From Tolypothrix brevis GSE-NOS-MK-07-07A (GTDB lineage: Bacteria; Cyanobacteriota; Cyanobacteriia; Cyanobacteriales; Nostocaceae): a stretch of 48,125 nt of DNA. A model generated the notes under the pieces. It saw only the letters and a program-made list of their open reading frames with translations. It was not told the DNA's origin and searched no databases. The stretch is taken from assembly GCA_019358985.1 (NCBI GenBank), contig JAHHIJ010000045.1:1-48125 (forward strand), in the 5' to 3' direction. Both the position numbers and the translations under genes were made by a program. Position 1 is the stretch's first letter; every line of letters starts with the position of its first letter. Positions 5,947 through 27,849 of this stretch are shown in pieces.

Positions 5947-7152
5947 TTAAACCTGACTAACTATGACATCCGTCAATTCCGACGAATCGGAAAGCACAAT
6001 AGAATCGTGCGTCGCGGTAAAGGCAGTTGCTTGCAAAGCACGTAACATAATGTTCCGTGCGCCATTTACATCACGAGAGATTTTAAGGGAGCAATGTGGG
6101 CATTTAAAAACTTTAGAACCACCAAGTCTATGGTGAATATGACCGCAATTGCCACAAGTTTTAGAAGTGTAAGACTCGTTACAAAGAACGACTATTACGT
6201 TTCTTTTTAATGCAGCTTGTTTAAGATGTTGCTCGAATCTATAGTGAGAAAGAGTTAACATTTGACGTACTGATTTATTATTAATTCTACGTTTCTTGCT
6301 CTTCCTAGTTTTGATAACCATTTGACTGGTATCAAAACTAGGAATAAAAATTACTTTGTAAGAATTAACTAACAATTTGACGGCTTTGTTATGCAACTCT
6401 TTAATCAGATTTTGAATCCTTTCTCTGATTCTATTTGCAGCAATTCGCATCTTTCTACGTTGACGGCACTTAACTCTGGTGGATTGGCTTATTAGCTTGT
6501 CAAGGTGCTGACACAATCTTTGTATGCGTCCGATGTCTCCCTTTCCAATCTCTAAGATGTTCTCTCCATCAAAACCGGTTAAAAAAGTGCGATTACCAGG
6601 GTCGAGCGCAATTACTCTATCGCTTCTTTGCGGTGATATTTCTCGATATTGCGGGAAACAACCAAACCATTTACCACGACGGTATACAAGCTCTGTTCCA
6701 TACTCGCATTGCTGCGGAACGTCACAACCAAAAGTATTAAACTTTAAACCTTTGGTTGTATTGCAATACCATGTGCCATTCTTATAATTGCCTACCTTAA
6801 ATTGTATTGCTTGACTAGTAGCTTTTACAGATTTAAATTTAGCTGCACCACCATCTTTTTTAGCTCGATTAAACGCATCGTATGCTTCAAAACAAGCTTC
6901 TTGACGTTGATGACCAGGTATTGATGTTACCCAATCAGGAGTATTTTCTAGTCGTTGCAAGTACTTGTCTAAGGACTCGGCGCTTAATTTTTCTACACCA
7001 TCATAACAACGTAGTAAACTAATAGTTTCGTTGTAATAATAGCGATATTGAGCTAGCCAGCGCTTCCAAACTGAGTACAGTTCCTTGCTAGGATATAGCC
7101 TGATTTTGAGTACACTGTTCGGTCGAGGCTTTATCGATTTCGTGTGTCTCAC
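5947..7152 (-). CDS. tnpB: TnpB of the IS607 element (zinc-ribbon RuvC nuclease)
   Basis: An RNA-guided RuvC-like nuclease carried by the IS. RuvC-I reads RVIALDPGNRTF and RuvC-III reads ISRDVNGARNIMLR. Between them a zinc ribbon, CGNCGHIHHRLGGSKVFKCP, follows SYTSKT. The RuvC-II segment reads VIFIPSFDTSQMV: the canonical Glu position is Pro, with an acidic residue three positions later (Asp here, often Glu in relatives). That is a shifted active-site arrangement. The open frame runs up to 7722, but the N-terminal ~190 residues are a shadow of tnpA. The probable start is the GTG at 7152 (VRHTKSIKPRPN), giving 401 residues and a 65-bp overlap with tnpA. Intact. Confidence 0.85.
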   Translation of the reverse strand: MRHTKSIKPRPNSVLKIRLYPSKELYSVWKRWLAQYRYYYNETISLLRCYDGVEKLSAESLDKYLQRLENTPDWVTSIPGHQRQEACFEAYDAFNRAKKDGGAAKFKSVKATSQAIQFKVGNYKNGTWYCNTTKGLKFNTFGCDVPQQCEYGTELVYRRGKWFGCFPQYREISPQRSDRVIALDPGNRTFLTGFDGENILEIGKGDIGRIQRLCQHLDKLISQSTRVKCRQRRKMRIAANRIRERIQNLIKELHNKAVKLLVNSYKVIFIPSFDTSQMVIKTRKSKKRRINNKSVRQMLTLSHYRFEQHLKQAALKRNVIVVLCNESYTSKTCGNCGHIHHRLGGSKVFKCPHCSLKISRDVNGARNIMLRALQATAFTATHDSIVLSDSSELTDVIVSQV

Positions 7153-7729
7153 CTTCTTTTTGTAGGTCTTCTTTGAACTTGGATTTATATTTTCTAAGCC
7201 CGTATAACCTGCTAGAGAAGCAGTGGACGATGGACAGCATATCTTGAATGAGTTCGGTTTCTGGACTGAGCTTGCGGTCATTGAGAACCACGAGTTCACA
7301 CTCAAATTTTTCGCATAACCACTTAACCAATTCATATCCAAATCTAACGAGTCGGTCAGGGTGGGCAACGACAAGACGTTGGATATCGCCGTCAATGATT
7401 CGTTCCAAAATAGAGAGGAATTTTTTCCGTTTAAAATTGAGTCCGCTTCCAGTTTCTGAAATGACTTCGCAATAGGGGTATTGTTCGCGTAAAAACGCAA
7501 GTTGTCGCTGCAAATCGTCTTGTTGGGAATGAGTTGAAACCCTAGAGTAGCAAACAGTTCTAACTGTCCCGGCGATACCTGCGGTTTTTTCAACCTCTTC
7601 GAGGATGAACCTTCTTTGCCCTCCTGGTGTCCTGATTGCTTTGAGCTTTCCTTCGTTTTCCCATCTCCTGAGACTGGAAACGTGGACACCAAGGATTTTA
7701 GCAGCTTCCTTGGGGGTGACATGTTGCAT
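7088..7729 (-). CDS. tnpA: IS607-family serine recombinase TnpA
   Basis: The product of about 213 residues has an N-terminal MerR-like helix-turn-helix (TPKEAAKILGVHVSSLRRWE, residues ~5-24). A small serine-recombinase domain follows, starting at VCYSRVSTHSQQDDL, with the catalytic Ser in YSRVS. The C-terminal segment contains HPDRLVRFGYELVKW and SIVHCFSSRLYGLRKY, both typical of IS607 transposases. The ATG at 7729 is preferred over the TTG one codon earlier. It overlaps tnpB by 65 bp. No frameshift is seen, so the element may still be mobile. Confidence 0.9.
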   Translation of the reverse strand: MQHVTPKEAAKILGVHVSSLRRWENEGKLKAIRTPGGQRRFILEEVEKTAGIAGTVRTVCYSRVSTHSQQDDLQRQLAFLREQYPYCEVISETGSGLNFKRKKFLSILERIIDGDIQRLVVAHPDRLVRFGYELVKWLCEKFECELVVLNDRKLSPETELIQDMLSIVHCFSSRLYGLRKYKSKFKEDLQKEGETHEIDKASTEQCTQNQAIS

Positions 7730-18879: not shown

Positions 18880-20202
18880 TTACAAACTAAATTCTGCTGC
18901 ATCATCATCAACATCTGTATTTTTACCCACAACAGTTAACTTAAAATCTGAACCATGAATCAATTTACTAAAAGAAATTTCTGGATTTTGATACAGAATA
19001 TTCAATACACTAATAAAATCCCGGACAATTTCGCCCGGAGTCAACAATGCTTCTGCACCCAAACGATTGATAATTTCGTTTATAAAGTCCTTCAATTCGC
19101 GATTTGTTAAAGCCTTATCATAAGCAAAATTAAGAGCATGAATCTCAACCAAACCTTGCAAAAGCGTTAATATCTCATCTTCAGTCAACGGATTTAGCCG
19201 CATCACTGGTCCGGAATATTCTTGAATTCCCCCTTGAACAAAACGGCTTTCTTTAGTGCGTCTTCGCCAAGCTGGGTCAGCAAAAAGTCCGCGATTTGGG
19301 TCTTCTAAAAATTTTGTAGTTCCACCGATAACAATACCAAGATGTTCTGCTTTGCATTGCATGGTATCGTTAAACATTGCTAATAGTCTGTTATAGTTCT
19401 TTTCGCGAGTAACTGTAGTGGATATTTGGTATATATGCACAACTTCATCAAGCAAAACTAAAAGTCCTTTATAGCCAATCTCTGCCACAAATTTAGCGAT
19501 TAACTTGATATAGTCATACCAACTATCATCATCAATAATTACGCGCACTCCTAAAGCAGCTTTTGCCTCAGTTTTGGTGTTAAATTCGCCTCGTAACCAC
19601 CGCAATGCAGCATTTTTTAGTTCATCATCATCAAGCCTGTAACCGCGCCAATAAGCAATAATGACGGTACCAAAATCAAAGCCATGAACTAAGTCTTCAA
19701 TATATTGAACTACTTCTCTAATTTTCGTTTCTACTTTATCATCAAAACCTTCATCATTAGGACGCATTCCGCTATCTTTAGCTACTTCTTGTTGAATTTT
19801 ATTAATCCAACCTTCTAAAATTGAGACTAAAGCACCACCATCAGGACGAGTTTTTGTTGCCAGCCGGCTCATTAATTCTCGATAAGTTGCCAAACCTTCG
19901 TTGTTTGTTCCTGCAAGTCGGCGTTCTGAAGATAAATCAGCATCAGCTACTACAAAATTTTGCTCCATAGCACGGTTGCGAGTGATTTGTAGGATGAAAC
20001 TTTTACCTGAACCGTAGTTACCAATTATGAAGCGAAATGCGGCTACACCTTCTCCAATATCGTCGAGATTTTGTAATAGGCTTTTTAATTCTTTTTCTCG
20101 ACCTACTGCTATATGTTCCAGTCCAAATCTCGGTACTACTCCCGCACTCAAGGAGTTGATTAAAGCAGTAGATATTTTTTTCGATATTTTAAGCTTTGCC
20201 AT
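18880..20202 (-). CDS. BrxD/DUF2791-type P-loop ATPase
   Basis: The product of about 440 residues has a Walker A GNYGSGKS (residues ~61-68 from the ATG at 20202), a Walker B GLLVLLDEVVHIY (~245) and a late GGTTKFLED sensor-like segment. The fold and C-terminal part (LTPGEIVRDFISVLNIL) match the DUF2791/BrxC-BrxD ATP-binding family. Members occur in BREX type 2 loci and in TerB-linked stress loci with a helicase. Neither a BREX methylase/PglZ nor a helicase is in this window. The gene is co-oriented with the TerB-C-like coiled-coil protein upstream, a known partner domain. GAGG lies eight bases before the ATG. It looks intact. Role inferred, not shown. Confidence 0.75.
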   Translation of the reverse strand: MAKLKISKKISTALINSLSAGVVPRFGLEHIAVGREKELKSLLQNLDDIGEGVAAFRFIIGNYGSGKSFILQITRNRAMEQNFVVADADLSSERRLAGTNNEGLATYRELMSRLATKTRPDGGALVSILEGWINKIQQEVAKDSGMRPNDEGFDDKVETKIREVVQYIEDLVHGFDFGTVIIAYWRGYRLDDDELKNAALRWLRGEFNTKTEAKAALGVRVIIDDDSWYDYIKLIAKFVAEIGYKGLLVLLDEVVHIYQISTTVTREKNYNRLLAMFNDTMQCKAEHLGIVIGGTTKFLEDPNRGLFADPAWRRRTKESRFVQGGIQEYSGPVMRLNPLTEDEILTLLQGLVEIHALNFAYDKALTNRELKDFINEIINRLGAEALLTPGEIVRDFISVLNILYQNPEISFSKLIHGSDFKLTVVGKNTDVDDDAAEFSL

Positions 20203-20282
20203 GCACTTCACCTCACTTTATTTTCTAGCGGTTCTCAGCCGATTCGAGTACATATAGCAGATTCCATTATTATTAAATATAC

Positions 20283-20311
20283 GTAGAGACGTTCCGCCGG
20301 AATGTCTTTAC
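20283..20311. repeat. Dispersed GTAGAGACG palindrome
   Basis: A copy of the short palindrome GTAGAGACGTTCC...GGAAYGTCTTTAC, with two changed bases. It lies in the 246-bp gap between the DUF2791 and TerB-C-like genes. The rest of this gap shows no gene. Confidence 0.75.
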
Positions 20312-20448
20312 AGGGTTTTTTATGTACCTCATTTATCTGAAATCTGCTGTATATTTTTATCTGTAGTTCATTATTTTTGTGATGTATTGCACCCAATTTA
20401 AAACCGCTATAAACGTCAAAAATAAAATTGTGCGATGGCAAGAATAAC

Positions 20449-21723
20449 TTAATTTGATGAGGCTTGTCTAGTCGTCAATTCATAGGTTGCGATGATTTTT
20501 TTTACGTTTTTTATATGCTCTTGATAAATTTTTGGAGTTTCCAAGTTTGGGTCAATTATTAATTCCTCAATTGTATCATTAGCGTGTTCATTTATAGAAT
20601 CAATTAACAAATTTGGCATAGTAATATGTGTTTCGGCGATGTGTTTAATAGCAGCTTTGGGATTTTCTTGTTCTACTATTGCTTTTAACACTTGTATTTC
20701 ATAAGCTGGTAGCTGTTCTAATAATTTAGCCCATTCTTTGGGTAAATCAGATGTATTTTCCGATATTGAATCTAAATCTATTAAGTCAGAAAAAGGAAAT
20801 AAATCTACATCTTCTTCTCCTTCGTTTTCTGGAAAATCTTGCTGATTGTATGTTTCCGTTTGTTGGAGTAATTCCCAAACTTGATTTTGTAACAAATCGC
20901 GTTCTTGCTGCAATAATAAAACTTGCTCTTGTAAATGATTAAGTTCAGTTTTTTGTTCTGTTGTTTGGGTTTGTAATAAATTTAGACTAGCTTGTGTATT
21001 TTCTCTTTCAGATTTTTTATTTAAAATTAATTCATTGTGCTGAATTACCTGATTTTCTAGCTCTTGCAGTTCAACGCGCAATTCGTAAAGTCTTTCTTCT
21101 AATTGAGGTTTGAGCCTGTCTAGCAAAGTTAGATTGCTTTCAGCATCTTGTTTTTCTTGTTGGAGTTCACTAATTTGAGTTTGCAGTTTAGTTATTTCTG
21201 CTCGCGATACGTTGGAATTTAATTCTAGACGGCGTTTTTCTGCTGTCAGAGCCGAAAATGAATTATTTAGCTCGACTTTACTTTTATCCAGCTGATAAAG
21301 CTCTGTTTGAAGTAAGCTTATTTCTACTTCTAACTGTTTCTTTTGTCCGACAAAACTGCTTAATTCTCGATTTAAACTATCTCTTTGATTGCGACGTTCT
21401 GATACTTGATTTTGCAGCTGATTTGACTCTGTATATAATAAAACACGATGCTCTTCAATTTGGTTTATTTCTCTGACAAGACGAGACTTCAAACCCTCAA
21501 GCTCTTTTATTCGCTTGTAGAGGGAACCCAAAACGAGCATTTCGTGATTTCTGCGAATGTTATCGACAAATAATGCTGCGGAATAACTAGCTATTACAGT
21601 AATTGCAGCTGTGAGAAAGGCTTTACTAAAATCCCAAGTTGGGACGAGACTAAGACCAAAACTCACACTAAAGGCAACTATACCTAAAAGTACAAATCGA
21701 TTACTTACCATTGCGGATTGCAT
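20449..21723 (-). CDS. Membrane-anchored coiled-coil protein with a TerB-C-like domain
   Basis: The product of about 424 residues starts with two hydrophobic helices (~11-25 and ~31-52: FVLLGIVAFSVSFGLSL, FLTAAITVIASYSAALFV). A long coiled coil (~65-290) with dense Leu/Gln/Glu heptads follows, then an acidic linker (PENEGEEDVDLFPFSDLIDL). The C-terminal ~90 residues (LPKEWAKLLEQLPAYEIQVL, MPNLLIDSINEHANDTIEEL) resemble TerB-C, with the INE-A signature. TerB-C proteins are usual partners of DUF2791 ATPases, the next gene in the same direction. The upstream gene is a DUF815 ATPase 84 bp away. The ATG at 21723 is chosen; the TTG at 21747 is less likely. The combination of membrane anchor, coiled coil and TerB-C is unusual. 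Confidence 0.65.
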   Translation of the reverse strand: MQSAMVSNRFVLLGIVAFSVSFGLSLVPTWDFSKAFLTAAITVIASYSAALFVDNIRRNHEMLVLGSLYKRIKELEGLKSRLVREINQIEEHRVLLYTESNQLQNQVSERRNQRDSLNRELSSFVGQKKQLEVEISLLQTELYQLDKSKVELNNSFSALTAEKRRLELNSNVSRAEITKLQTQISELQQEKQDAESNLTLLDRLKPQLEERLYELRVELQELENQVIQHNELILNKKSERENTQASLNLLQTQTTEQKTELNHLQEQVLLLQQERDLLQNQVWELLQQTETYNQQDFPENEGEEDVDLFPFSDLIDLDSISENTSDLPKEWAKLLEQLPAYEIQVLKAIVEQENPKAAIKHIAETHITMPNLLIDSINEHANDTIEELIIDPNLETPKIYQEHIKNVKKIIATYELTTRQASSN

Positions 21724-21807
21724 ATTGCTTGTTTTTAGTTTAGTCAATTTTTAATTTATAGACTTCAGGCAAAAGGGGAAATTTTAATGCGTCCTACTTT
21801 ACGCGGT

Positions 21808-24392: not shown

Positions 24393-24696
24393 ATGCGTCA
24401 ATTTTTCTTGAACTCGCAGAAAGCCGGAAAGTCAACAACAGTAAACAACTTAACCACAAAACTAAATATCAATTCAAGCAAAAATACTTATTGTGCATAA
24501 ATAATTTACGATTTTTTTTCAAGGAATATTAAATACAGAATTGCCATTTTGGCAGGTTTTTCTTTTGGAGATCGGATATTAGTAGATTGTAATCATCGTG
24601 ATTAATATTCCCAGTGTTATTGCTGTCTACCACGAACTACAAAAGTTAAGCCAATCTGGATCTTGCGTGATTTACGAGAGCAACTTTAAGAATTAG
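24393..24696 (+). pseudogene. Decayed P-loop ATPase fragment (BY-kinase/ParA-like)
   Basis: One frame reads NSQKAGKSTTVNNLTTKL, resembling a Walker A and its helix. After an in-frame TAA at 24498 the same frame continues to GDRILVDCNHR. A shift of one base then gives INIPSVIAVYHELQKLSQSG. Together this mimics the GKSTT...RVLLVDADLRRPS order of bacterial tyrosine kinases or ParA-type ATPases, interrupted by a stop and a frameshift. The match is by eye and weak. The first 35-codon frame (24393-24500), ending NTYCA, could instead be a small peptide gene. Confidence 0.3.
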
Positions 24697-24706
24697 GAAA
24701 TAATAC

Positions 24707-25942
24707 ATGGTAGTTTCACTGTCTTCTCATAACGTTATCCAGTATCTGCAACAAGCAGGTCTGTGTAGCTCAGAAGATGGCGCATCTGGCGATTCTGAGT
24801 TACCTGAAAGTAAGAAAAACTTAAATTTACTGATTACTCTGGCAGATAATCGCAAACTGCTGGTTAAACAGGAACGTAGCATTGACCTTTCGGATGGAAA
24901 AGAGCAATTTTTCAATGAGTGGCTGTTTCACCAATTGCTTGAGCAATTTCCAGTGATTGGTAACATCGGGGCGATCGCCTCATCAGTGCTACACTTCGAT
25001 GAGGAAAACTCGATCCTGATCCGCAGCTACTTAAGTGAGTATCAGGAACTAGGGAATTATTATCAACAAAACGATATTTTCCCCCAAGCGATCGCCAGCA
25101 CCATTGGCGATACCTTAGGAGCGCTGCATCGTGCTACATTCAATCGTCGTGAGTATCGCGATTTTATGGCAACTGCTCCCGAAGGACAGTTTCGCTATCA
25201 CTTCAACAATCCAGCACAAGGAATCGATTCAATTGCACCTGAGATTTTTAGCGTGGTTCCCACTGATGCGCTGAAATTTTATGCATTCTATCAACGCCAC
25301 GACAACTTAGAATCAGCAATTGGAGACTTAGCAAACGATTGGCAACCTTGCTGCTTGACTCATAACGACCTGAAATTAGACAACATTTTGATCCATTCCA
25401 GGTGGGAACACTTAGATAATGCGATCGTCCGGCTGATTGACTGGGAAGCATGTGCTTGGGGAGATCCAGCTTTTGATTTAGGAACTTTACTGGCAAGCTA
25501 TTTAAAAATTTGGCTAGACAGTTTGGTGGTAGATCCTACCATTGAGTTAGAAGAATCTTTGGAATTGGCGGTGACACCTTTAGAAATTCTTCAACCTTCA
25601 ATGCTTGCCCTAACTCAAGCTTATCTCAAAGCTTTTCCCAACATTTTAGACTACCGTAATGATTTTTTATTGCGTGTTATTCAGTTTGCGGGTTTAGCAC
25701 TGATGCATCAAATTGAGGCAACGATTAAGTACCATAAATACTTTGATAATATCAGCATCTCAATGCTTCAAGTCGCCAAAAATCTACTCACCATGCCACA
25801 GCAAGCTGTGCTAACTGTTTTCGGTATTTCTGAATCGGAAATACTCAAACCCGTTGCCAAATTAGAAAACTTGCCTCAACCAGAAAGCAAGCAGAATTTG
25901 GTTCCTCTTTATTACCCAAAAACTCGTCTGCGTGGATGTTAA
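24707..25942 (+). CDS. APH-like kinase, possible lanthipeptide-type Ser/Thr kinase
   Basis: The 411-residue product has the aminoglycoside-phosphotransferase/choline-kinase fold. The catalytic loop is CLTHNDLKLDNIL (~221-233) and the Mg-binding segment is RLIDWEACAWGDPAFDLGTL (~246-266). The N-terminal ATP-lobe has LLVKQER (~51-57). An antibiotic-resistance role is unlikely from context, because it is followed 125 bp later by a HopA1-family gene. APH-like kinase plus HopA1-like lyase is the split enzyme pair of class V lanthipeptide biosynthesis (LxmK/LxmY type), in which the kinase phosphorylates Ser/Thr of a precursor. No clear precursor is found. AGGA precedes the ATG. The last ~12 codons are duplicated downstream. 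Confidence 0.75.
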   Translation: MVVSLSSHNVIQYLQQAGLCSSEDGASGDSELPESKKNLNLLITLADNRKLLVKQERSIDLSDGKEQFFNEWLFHQLLEQFPVIGNIGAIASSVLHFDEENSILIRSYLSEYQELGNYYQQNDIFPQAIASTIGDTLGALHRATFNRREYRDFMATAPEGQFRYHFNNPAQGIDSIAPEIFSVVPTDALKFYAFYQRHDNLESAIGDLANDWQPCCLTHNDLKLDNILIHSRWEHLDNAIVRLIDWEACAWGDPAFDLGTLLASYLKIWLDSLVVDPTIELEESLELAVTPLEILQPSMLALTQAYLKAFPNILDYRNDFLLRVIQFAGLALMHQIEATIKYHKYFDNISISMLQVAKNLLTMPQQAVLTVFGISESEILKPVAKLENLPQPESKQNLVPLYYPKTRLRGC

Positions 25943-26032
25943 CTTCGTAGCGAGGGGTTCACCGCTCATCTTTATTACCCAAAAACTCGTCTGCGTGGAT
26001 GTTAACTTTGTAGCGAGCGGTTCACCGCTCAT
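25907..26032 (+). repeat. Tandem duplication of the APH-like gene's 3' end plus a palindrome
   Basis: Two 63-bp units start at 25907 and 25970. Each contains the last ~12 codons of the upstream gene, its TAA, and the palindrome GAGCGGTTCACCGCTC (perfect in unit 2, imperfect in unit 1). A separate palindrome AAGCGCTGAAGCGCTT follows at 26039-26054. Confidence 0.9.
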
Positions 26033-26067
26033 TAATTAAAGCGCTGAAGCGCTTACTACATTTGAAA

Positions 26068-27135
26068 ATGCTATATACACCTACAAATCAACTCCTAGAT
26101 ACTCTATTTGACATTGCCAGCAATATTGAGATTGAATCCAACTTTTGCATTATTCATCCCAATTATCAACCTTTTGCCTTGTCAAAAAAAGTAGCAGACA
26201 GATTTCAACAAAATCTGCCAACATTGCAACGTAAATATCTGACTCTGCTACTGCGAAATTTTATTTACGGAATTTATTACAATGGTTCTTTGCGAAACAT
26301 TTTGGCACTAAATGCCAAACCAGCTAAGTTATTACCACACCAAACTTTAGAAAACAATTATATTTTCGATACTGATTGCGAATTTTACGGACAATTAGAT
26401 GCTAGTAATCACGGTGTCGGTTATCTTGATTCTGGTTGGCAAGTTTTGCGACAAGAACCTGATGGTACTTTGGTGGTAATTAAAGACGGTTTGACATTGC
26501 ATGTTGAGTATAACTCGCCTATGCAACCAAGTATGAAATCTGCCAAAATTGGTCAGTTGGTTGCAATTTTGATGCCAAAAAATCGACTACAAAATAATTA
26601 TTATTTAGCAGTGAGCAATAATCCAAATGTTGATTTGGATATGGGGCGAATTTATTTTAATTTAACTCCTCCTGGAGCGATCGCTCTCATGGATAGTCTC
26701 ACTCTACAATTAAACGCGGCTGAGATTTTCTTTAACTTTCAAGTTCTCTACAACCCTTGTGCATACCAACGTTACGACTCTGGGGTGCTGTATTTTCAAC
26801 GCAACGACTATCCAGCGGTGCGGAAAGTACTTCAAGCTGTTTATTGGGAGTATAAATCTTATTTTAAGCCAGAAATACCTTTATTTACCAAGTTTTTAGC
26901 CCCTGGCTTGAGTTTAGCTGAAGAACCAAGCCAAAAATTTGCTGCACAAGATAATTTTGGCATGAATCGTTGTCAAATTATCGCTTCTTCTTTGTTGTCA
27001 GTTTGGCAAAAAGGTGATAACAGTATTGAGGGGAAAATGAAAGCGATCGCTCAACACTTTACAGAGCTAAATATAGATTTACAGCGTCCCTACCTCAATC
27101 CCTACTCTAAAGATACTTATTACTTTTTAAATTGA
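26068..27135 (+). CDS. HopA1-family protein, possible lanthipeptide-type lyase
   Basis: The 355-residue product matches the HopA1 family (originally a type III effector) found in many cyanobacteria. Visible blocks are RNFIYGIYYNGSL near residue 70, FYGQLDASNHGVGYLDSGWQ (~110-129), FYNQ-like RIYFNLTPPGAIALMD (~196-211), KVLYN-like FQVLYNPCAYQRYDSGVLYF (~225-244) and APGLSLAEEPSQKF near 277. In class V lanthipeptide loci a HopA1 protein (LxmY) eliminates phosphate from phospho-Ser/Thr made by the APH-like partner, which is the gene just upstream here. Plant-pathogen effector function is not expected in a cyanobacterium. The ATG at 26068 is preferred over the TTG at 26062. Complete. Confidence 0.75.
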   Translation: MLYTPTNQLLDTLFDIASNIEIESNFCIIHPNYQPFALSKKVADRFQQNLPTLQRKYLTLLLRNFIYGIYYNGSLRNILALNAKPAKLLPHQTLENNYIFDTDCEFYGQLDASNHGVGYLDSGWQVLRQEPDGTLVVIKDGLTLHVEYNSPMQPSMKSAKIGQLVAILMPKNRLQNNYYLAVSNNPNVDLDMGRIYFNLTPPGAIALMDSLTLQLNAAEIFFNFQVLYNPCAYQRYDSGVLYFQRNDYPAVRKVLQAVYWEYKSYFKPEIPLFTKFLAPGLSLAEEPSQKFAAQDNFGMNRCQIIASSLLSVWQKGDNSIEGKMKAIAQHFTELNIDLQRPYLNPYSKDTYYFLN

Positions 27136-27417: not shown

Positions 27418-27849
27418 ATGCCGTTTACTTATAACCGCACCGTTCGATTTTCAGATACTGATGCCGCTGGGGTAGTTTACTTTGCCAACGTTTTGTCTAT
27501 TTGTCATGAAGCTTATGAAGCATCTTTAGAAGCTTCAAGTATTAAGATAAAAGATTTTTTTAGCAATACATCTGTGGCTTTTCCCATTATTCACGCTGAT
27601 GTAGATTTTTTTCGTCCGATGTTTTGTGGGGATAAGTTAACTATTAGCTTGATTCCGCAAAAAGTCGGTGTTGAAAAGTTTGAAATAGCTTACGAAATTG
27701 TAGTTGATGATGTAATAGTTGCTAAGGCAATTACTCGACACGTTTGTATTGAGGCAAGTAGTAGAAGTAAAAGGGAGTTATCGGGTGAGATAATAAAATG
27801 GTTGGAAACAAACCGCAGAGAATGCGTAAATCCTAAAGTTGCTCTTTAG
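27418..27849 (+). CDS. 1,4-dihydroxy-2-naphthoyl-CoA hydrolase (hotdog thioesterase)
   Basis: A 143-residue hotdog-fold thioesterase that releases dihydroxynaphthoate from its CoA ester in phylloquinone synthesis. The N-terminal [20 protein letters not shown] contains the catalytic Asp16 motif of 4-hydroxybenzoyl-CoA thioesterase relatives. [18 protein letters not shown] is also typical. It resembles Synechocystis Slr0204. Its nearness to menE, menC, menA and menF supports the pathway assignment. Its 3' end overlaps the convergent DUF4288-like gene by 17 bp. Confidence 0.85.

What the first reader, a model, noticed from the sequence alone, without database searches (positions are those of the whole stretch)
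24707..27135. APH-like kinase plus HopA1-like protein: a class V lanthipeptide-type pair without a visible precursor
Known: class V lanthipeptide synthesis uses an APH-like kinase (LxmK) and a HopA1-like lyase (LxmY). Here both are intact and adjacent in a cyanobacterium. I find no convincing precursor next to them. The peptide may be elsewhere in the genome, or the pair may modify a different protein.
Basis: partly seen in the sequence, partly recalled or inferred. Interest (0 to 1): 0.75.

Follow-up and report, generated by a model that had tools for sequence, protein, structure and literature searches.

The report
Repurposed lanthipeptide-type kinase and pseudo-lyase
A two-gene enzyme pair related to those that build lanthipeptides appears, in one family of filamentous cyanobacteria, to have lost both its peptide and the key catalytic residue of one partner, yet nearly all sampled members keep it, which suggests another, still unknown job in the cell.

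Summary
The pair is real: an APH-fold kinase (24707-25942) and a HopA1-family protein (26068-27135), relatives of the class V lanthipeptide dehydratase LanK/LanY. It does not look like an orphan cluster that lost its precursor. It belongs to a distinct group ("clade I"), assigned to about 185 of 192 sampled genomes of the window's family and not seen outside it. Clade I is nested among ordinary cyanobacterial RiPP pairs ("clade II"), which lie beside double-glycine precursors and often exporters. Clade I differs: no such precursor in its neighbourhood (0 of 127 loci against 61 of 62) nor in the window's genome; a mostly fixed chromosomal setting; the lyase's catalytic lysine (CaoY K219) replaced, by Gln in 120 of 127 (Lys in 0 of 127; Lys in 63 of 63 clade II); a kinase tail ending in KTRLRGC (107 of 125; in none of 65 kinases of Lys-type pairs); a conserved upstream DNA element. 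Kinase active-site residues and purifying selection on both genes are kept. Best reading: a domesticated kinase with a non-eliminating pseudo-lyase partner acting on a cellular target. Substrate unknown; no experiment.

The parts
24707..25942 (+). APH-fold (LanK-like) kinase, 411 aa; K54, H219, D221, N226, D245 of the kinase active site present
25919..25939 (+). codons of the clade I-specific C-terminal heptapeptide KTRLRGC
   Evidence: exact in 107 of 125 clade I kinases, terminal Cys in 122 of 125; in none of 65 kinases paired with Lys-type HopA1 proteins
26068..27135 (+). HopA1-family (LanY-like) protein, 355 aa, probable pseudo-lyase
26740..26742 (+). Gln225 codon (CAA) at the position of the catalytic lysine (CaoY K219)
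26647..26649 (+). Arg194, position of CaoY R187 (kept in 107 of 127 clade I)
26770..26772 (+). Arg235, position of CaoY R229 (kept in 124 of 127 clade I)
24541..24554 (+). upstream element TTGCCATTTTGGCA (inverted repeat TGCCA-TTT-TGGCA), about 165 bp before the kinase ATG; probable regulatory site (inference)
   Evidence: TGCC-N3-6-GGCA within 260 bp upstream of 102 of 125 clade I kinases, mostly near -163; the 14-mer TTGSCATTTTGGCA occurs once in this genome (the backward control also once)
27418..27849 (+). 4HBT hotdog thioesterase (DHNA-CoA thioesterase of phylloquinone synthesis by position and recall, not tested); frequent downstream neighbour, not shown to be functionally linked
   Evidence: 90 of 127 clade I loci

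Best explanation
The pair is a class V-type RiPP dehydratase taken over for a cellular role in the window's cyanobacterial family. Shown by comparison: common descent with RiPP pairs; no precursor or export genes nearby; the lyase's catalytic lysine replaced; a conserved kinase tail and upstream element; wide retention under purifying selection. Inferred: kinase and HopA1-like protein still form a heterodimer as CaoK/CaoY and LxmK/LxmY do; the kinase phosphorylates Ser/Thr of a cellular protein; the HopA1-like subunit, without its base, does not eliminate the phosphate but serves as scaffold, stabiliser or phospho-residue binding subunit; the KTRLRGC tail is a docking or regulatory element of the complex. 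The substrate is unknown.
For: Catalytic position: Lys in 0 of 127 clade I (120 Q, 4 E, 2 H, 1 Y) against 63 of 63 clade II; at 90% non-redundancy 57 Q, 4 E, 2 H, 1 Y of 64 clade I. CaoY K219A gives phosphorylation without dehydration (PMC9486802). Clade I is one group, SH-aLRT 99, all 49 non-redundant rows non-Lys. Precursor model: 0 of 127 clade I loci, 61 of 62 clade II loci. Exporter, AKR or PPIase genes: 0 of 127 against 42 of 62; 4HBT, Tmem14, DUF815 or BrxC/D flank: 100 of 127 against 0 of 62. No precursor in own genome, with positive controls. Tail. Kinase residues kept: K54 124, H219 125, D221 123, N226 124, D245 118 of 125. dN/dS medians 0.11-0.22 for both genes. Clade I assigned in about 185 of 192 family genomes, 170 of them by score alone.
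Against: No substrate, phenotype or expression datum. Loss of activity by Lys to Gln is inferred from another protein's Lys to Ala; another base could have taken over. Non-Lys HopA1 proteins also occur outside clade I, two of them beside PCAT exporter genes, so losing Lys does not prove leaving RiPP work. AlphaFold models are poor (mean pLDDT 56 and 51), so pocket and tail geometry are untested. R194 (20 of 127 changed) and Y242 (38 of 127 changed) vary in clade I, as expected of a dead site but weakening the phospho-reader idea. Precursors unlike the known cyanobacterial type would escape the search. In five genomes of 95-100% completeness (some drafts in hundreds of contigs) no clade I pair was found, so it may be dispensable in some lineages.
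Confidence: 0.55

Rival explanations
1. A working RiPP dehydratase that acts in trans on a precursor encoded elsewhere, with a different residue doing the lysine's work.
For: Descent from RiPP enzymes; the Lys-type sisters L072 and L251 have Cys-containing double-glycine peptides beside them; Gln is itself nearly invariant, so the position is under selection; Lys-less HopA1 genes stand beside PCAT genes in G467.
Against: No precursor of the family's type in own genome at E<=1 nor in 8 of 11 other genomes whose only HopA1 gene is clade I; the other 3 have 1, 3 and 1 matches, E 1e-8 to 0.004. No exporter or tailoring gene of the clade II kind at 35% identity or more in 127 loci. K219A abolishes elimination in CaoY (PMC9486802).
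Confidence: 0.2
2. A small-molecule (APH-type) kinase with a structural partner, for instance in quinone or cofactor metabolism next to the men genes.
For: Pfam APH fold; place beside the 4HBT thioesterase, MenE and MenC in many lineages.
Against: Closest kin lie in RiPP clusters; in many Nostoc and two Fischerella loci the pair persists without the men neighbours, so the link may be inherited gene order.
Confidence: 0.15
3. The kinase's own KTRLRGC tail is the substrate: Thr406 is phosphorylated and bound by the partner's pocket, or even dehydrated and closed onto Cys411.
For: Tail and base loss are both seen in clade I and in none of its three Lys-type sisters; Thr at that place in 118 of 125 and Ser in 1, terminal Cys in 122 of 125.
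Against: 6 of 125 have P, A or N instead of Ser/Thr and 3 end in Phe instead of Cys; one branch is one event; the tail has pLDDT under 50 in a poor model.
Confidence: 0.08
4. A decaying relic.
For: Lost catalytic lysine and varying R194 and Y242; not found in five genomes.
Against: dN/dS medians 0.11-0.22, retention in about 185 of 192 genomes, near-invariant tail and conserved upstream element.
Confidence: 0.02

Closest known systems
Class V lanthipeptide dehydratases LxmK/LxmY, CaoK/CaoY (and thioamitide TsaC/TsaD)
   Same: Adjacent APH-fold kinase and HopA1-family protein; kinase active site; residues at CaoY R187 and R229; LxmY (PDB 9DK1-3) is the best match by sequence and by fold
   Different: Catalytic Lys is Gln; no precursor, cyclase, decarboxylase, protease or exporter recognised beside it; extra conserved kinase tail; chromosomal and family-wide
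Cyanobacterial Family 1A HopA1/phosphotransferase clusters (PMC8153245; 'type-B LanA' of PMC9486802), which I equate with clade II here
   Same: Same phylum, HopA1 protein 44-56% identical to the window's, same gene order kinase-HopA1
   Different: Clade II keeps Lys, lies beside one to several double-glycine precursors and often PCAT/HlyD/AKR/PPIase genes, can be multi-copy and plasmid-borne, and lacks the KTRLRGC tail
Lys-type sister pairs L072, L075, L251
   Same: Branches next to clade I in the tree
   Different: Keep Lys, lack tail and upstream element; L072 and L251 have Cys-containing precursors beside them

Membership tests
Class V lanthipeptide LanK/LanY dehydratase | Adjacent PF01636 kinase and PF17914 protein | tested here: met
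Class V lanthipeptide LanK/LanY dehydratase | Catalytic lysine of the lyase (CaoY K219) | tested here: not met
   Gln225; 0 of 127 clade I have Lys
Class V lanthipeptide LanK/LanY dehydratase | Kinase catalytic residues | tested here: met
Class V lanthipeptide LanK/LanY dehydratase | Cognate precursor peptide encoded nearby or in the genome | tested here: not met
   limited to precursors of the known cyanobacterial type
Class V lanthipeptide LanK/LanY dehydratase | Tailoring and export genes in the cluster | tested here: not met
   for the clade II kinds of gene; actinobacterial LanX/LanD were not searched for
Class V lanthipeptide LanK/LanY dehydratase | NCBIfam LxmK equivalog cut-off (315 bits) | tested here: inconclusive
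   80 bits, but three cyanobacterial kinases beside precursors also score only 68, 86 and 81, while the actinobacterial one scores 452
Class V lanthipeptide LanK/LanY dehydratase | Phosphorylation then elimination in vitro; heterodimer formation | not testable with these tools
   needs protein work

The most novel reading that the evidence does not exclude
A RiPP phospho-Ser/Thr lyase has become a phospho-residue reader: with its base replaced by Gln but H30 and R235 kept, the HopA1 subunit binds rather than destroys the phosphate that its kinase installs, either on a cellular protein or on the kinase's own KTRLRGC tail, making a stable phospho-signalling module fixed in this cyanobacterial family.
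Probability: 0.2. Interest if true: 0.85.

Novelty: new variant of a known kind. Interest (0 to 1): 0.68.

Why it matters
[quoted passage not shown] This clade suggests that the pair alone need not mean a RiPP cluster: the residue at the catalytic lysine and the kinase tail tell the two apart in the sequences read here. It would also be a testable case of a natural-product enzyme turned into a conserved cellular component, in a family that includes genetically tractable laboratory strains (general knowledge).

Tried and rejected
Link to nitrogen fixation: the five genomes in which clade I was not found (G017, G059, G070, G111, G160) all have nifD; no support. Shared C-terminal motif as a general targeting signal: the DNA pattern for R-L-R-G-C-stop (TAA/TAG; it also admits Ser) has 29 matches in 14 genomes, the kinases included, against 59 for the backward control. 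Regulon of the 14-mer: 10 genomes have 1 to 6 sites each, control 0 to 2; it lies exactly before the pair in 4 of the 10 (G000, G002, G008, G023; elsewhere the element is a looser variant); of 30 of the 35 sites compared, only the kinases and one pair of small proteins share a downstream ORF; no convincing regulon. Conserved small ORFs around the pair: I read the upstream clusters as the conserved DNA element translated in several frames, not as a peptide. Rfam: four hits, all below the gathering score. Structure: models of A3 and A4 are too poor for pocket or tail conclusions; Foldseek puts LxmY first, E about 3e-9, but TM only 0.36-0.42. A guess, from recall, at locus tags in Anabaena PCC 7120 gave nothing useful. 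Literature on a role for this clade: none recognised in the listings; the library is partial, and the 15 papers listed do not contain the word HopA1.

Results against: non-Lys HopA1 proteins occur outside clade I (L255 N and L256 A beside PCAT genes; L257 G; L253 second copy Y; L073 second copy and L264 E).

Rows dropped: proteins under 250 aa from alignments; L035, L096 and L258 from the clade II counts and, with L259, from those; tree reduced at 85% identity to 115 of 199. Two clade I HopA1 genes (L148, L158) have no kinase in the fetched stretch, which begins just before them, hence 125 kinases. The 127 clade I and 62 clade II loci include genomes fetched twice (as unnamed G and as named record; L033 and L067 are one plasmid).

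Full report
OBSERVATION. The window is one whole contig (G000:C10) of a 6.52 Mb genome, 99.75% complete. Its closest named relatives at this locus are Hassallia byssoidea VB512170, Plectonema radiosum NIES-515 and Spirirestis rafaelensis (HopA1 protein 84-90% identical). The kinase ORF (24707-25942) and the HopA1-family ORF (26068-27135) are open and adjacent; the HopA1 gene is the genome's only one and the kinase finds only itself at E<=0.001 (ORFs). Upstream lie Tmem14, DUF815, TerB-C and BrxC/D-like genes; downstream a 4HBT thioesterase, MenE, MenC, a UbiA prenyltransferase (MenA by position, inference) and a chorismate-binding enzyme.

TWO CLADES. A search of 59 relatives found HopA1 homologues in 38, up to six per genome: in 34 of the 35 genomes of the window's family (the miss is 54% complete) and in 4 of 24 of other families. 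Two plasmid-borne relatives (Tolypothrix PCC 7910, Nostoc HK-01) lie in clusters with small double-glycine peptides, aldo/keto reductase, PPIases, HlyD and a peptidase-ABC exporter. I fetched 60 neighbourhoods, 80 named loci and 54 more stretches, at best 8 kb on each side and less at contig ends, and compared them. They fall mainly into two kinds. Clade II has precursors and often export genes. Clade I, with the window, has neither and mostly sits in the order BrxC/D-TerBC-DUF815-Tmem14-[kinase-HopA1]-4HBT-MenE-MenC. Over 127 clade I and 62 clade II loci: precursor model 0 against 61 (miss: L261); any exporter, AKR or PPIase at 35% identity or more 0 against 42; any of 4HBT, Tmem14, DUF815, BrxC/D 100 against 0. 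The precursor model was built from 18 clade II precursors plus 3 from Lys-type sisters, so part of the clade II count is by construction; the clade I zero is not. Some loci are one genome fetched twice.

CATALYTIC RESIDUE. CaoY needs K219 (K219A: phosphorylation only); R187A nearly abolishes and R229Q impairs elimination (PMC9486802: abstract, Results parts 1-2 of 3 and Discussion read). The clade II Lys aligns with a Lys of LxmY, PDB 9dk1_B, and with the Nonomuraea LanY. Clade I has Gln225 (numbering of the 355-aa form) in 120 of 127, Glu in 4, His in 2, Tyr in 1, Lys in none; clade II has Lys in 63 of 63. Clade II was gathered by this letter plus relatedness, so its 63 of 63 is partly by definition; the independent facts are that the split follows the tree and the gene neighbourhood. 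At 90% non-redundancy clade I is 57 Q, 4 E, 2 H, 1 Y of 64. H30 is kept in 127 of 127, R235 in 124, R194 in 107, Y242 in 89. Whether H30 corresponds to CaoY H57 is not settled (gap in L096).

KINASE. K54, H219, D221, N226, D245 are present in 124, 125, 123, 124 and 118 of 125 clade I kinases. The C-terminal end reads KTRLRGC in 107 of 125, ends in Cys in 122 and in Phe in 3; none of the 65 kinases paired with Lys-type HopA1 proteins has it. Residues around 157-172 are nearly invariant in clade I and different in clade II, compatible with a changed substrate or partner surface (inference).

UPSTREAM ELEMENT. TGCC-N3-6-GGCA occurs in the 260 bp before 102 of 125 clade I kinases, mostly near -163, within a longer conserved stretch (no chance control was run for this count). 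The three Lys-type sisters lack it. The exact 14-mer TTGSCATTTTGGCA precedes the pair in 4 of 10 genomes searched. No Rfam family at the gathering score. Probably a regulatory site (inference).

PHYLOGENY AND SELECTION. In a tree of 115 non-redundant HopA1 proteins (of 199) clade I is one group of 49, SH-aLRT 99, all non-Lys; its neighbours L072, L075, L251 keep Lys, and L072 and L251 have Cys-containing precursors beside them. The branches that join these neighbours have lower support (83, 84; the larger group 96), the search was quick and without bootstrap, and the outgroups have long branches. Six non-Lys proteins lie outside clade I, two of them beside PCAT genes, so Lys was lost more than once. 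dN/dS (NG86) medians in three clade I groups are 0.13-0.20 for the kinase and 0.11-0.22 for the HopA1 protein; six clade II pairs give 0.11-0.26.

DISTRIBUTION. Of 192 genomes of the family, 191 have a HopA1 match, among them 185 of 185 at least 90% complete and at most 5% contaminated. Clade I: 170 by score (best E 2.8e-167 or lower; an inference, since a Lys-type protein outside the family, L251, scores 8.5e-163) and 15 of 20 borderline genomes by sequence, about 185 of 192. Not found in G017, G059 (one of six places not read), G070 (only a fragment), G111, G160 (one of two places not read) and the incomplete G003; G112 (38% contamination) not classified. In a phylum sample of 386 genomes 13 matches lie outside the family; 12 genomes were read and none is clade I (G053 is a 44-residue fragment; one of three G467 places was not read). 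Three further outside genomes (G049, G054, G058) are not clade I either. Named clade I hosts include Nostoc, Anabaena, Fischerella, Chlorogloeopsis, Scytonema, Calothrix and Cylindrospermum; that these are heterocyst formers is general knowledge. nifD is present also in the five genomes without clade I, so no link to nitrogen fixation was found.

PRECURSOR IN TRANS. The precursor alignment A2 finds nothing in the window's genome at E<=1, finds 19, 12 and 4 matches in three control genomes with clade II, and in 11 genomes with a single HopA1 gene: none in 8; 1, 3 and 1 in G002, G015, G016.

STRUCTURE. Both AlphaFold models are poor (mean pLDDT 56 and 51). The HopA1 model still finds LxmY (9dk3, 9dk1, 9dk2) first, E about 3e-9, TM 0.36-0.42.

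READING. A RiPP dehydratase pair adopted for another function: kinase kept, elimination probably lost, tail and regulation gained. What it phosphorylates is open. Prior work describes kinase/HopA1 pairs as RiPP signatures, including 183 cyanobacterial Family 1A clusters (PMC8153245, passages; PMC7794033, passages; PMC12141560, one passage; PMC12291118, passages). I recognised no description of this clade in the listings.

Noticed in passing
window, about 25905-26035: The DNA coding the end of the kinase tail (RLRGC, stop) is tandemly repeated with a 63-bp period; G004 shows the same two matches 63 bp apart, G001 and G002 only one.
   Followed up: partly
window 18880-21747 (-): TerB-C and BrxC/D-like genes match the PADLOC models SngA (1.2e-18) and SngB (1.7e-176); BrxC/D stands beside 67 of 127 clade I loci, a setting unlike a mobile defence island.
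   Followed up: partly
window 5947-7722 (-): 591-aa protein with a Cas12f1-like TNB domain: TnpB or Cas12f relative.
   Followed up: no
L255, L256 (genome G467): HopA1 proteins with Asn or Ala at the catalytic lysine beside PCAT exporter genes: possible independent pseudo-lyases in RiPP-like clusters.
   Followed up: partly
L034:1240-2241; L033:9533-9781: The clade II plasmid precursors read are Ser/Thr-rich without Cys and sit with an aldo/keto reductase: dehydration followed by reduction to D-residues, without thioether rings, is a possibility (inference).
   Followed up: no
G000:C32:284457-285236 and G000:C54:53750-73343: nifD of the window's genome is found in pieces on two contigs, as expected of heterocyst-type excision elements (inference).
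   Followed up: no
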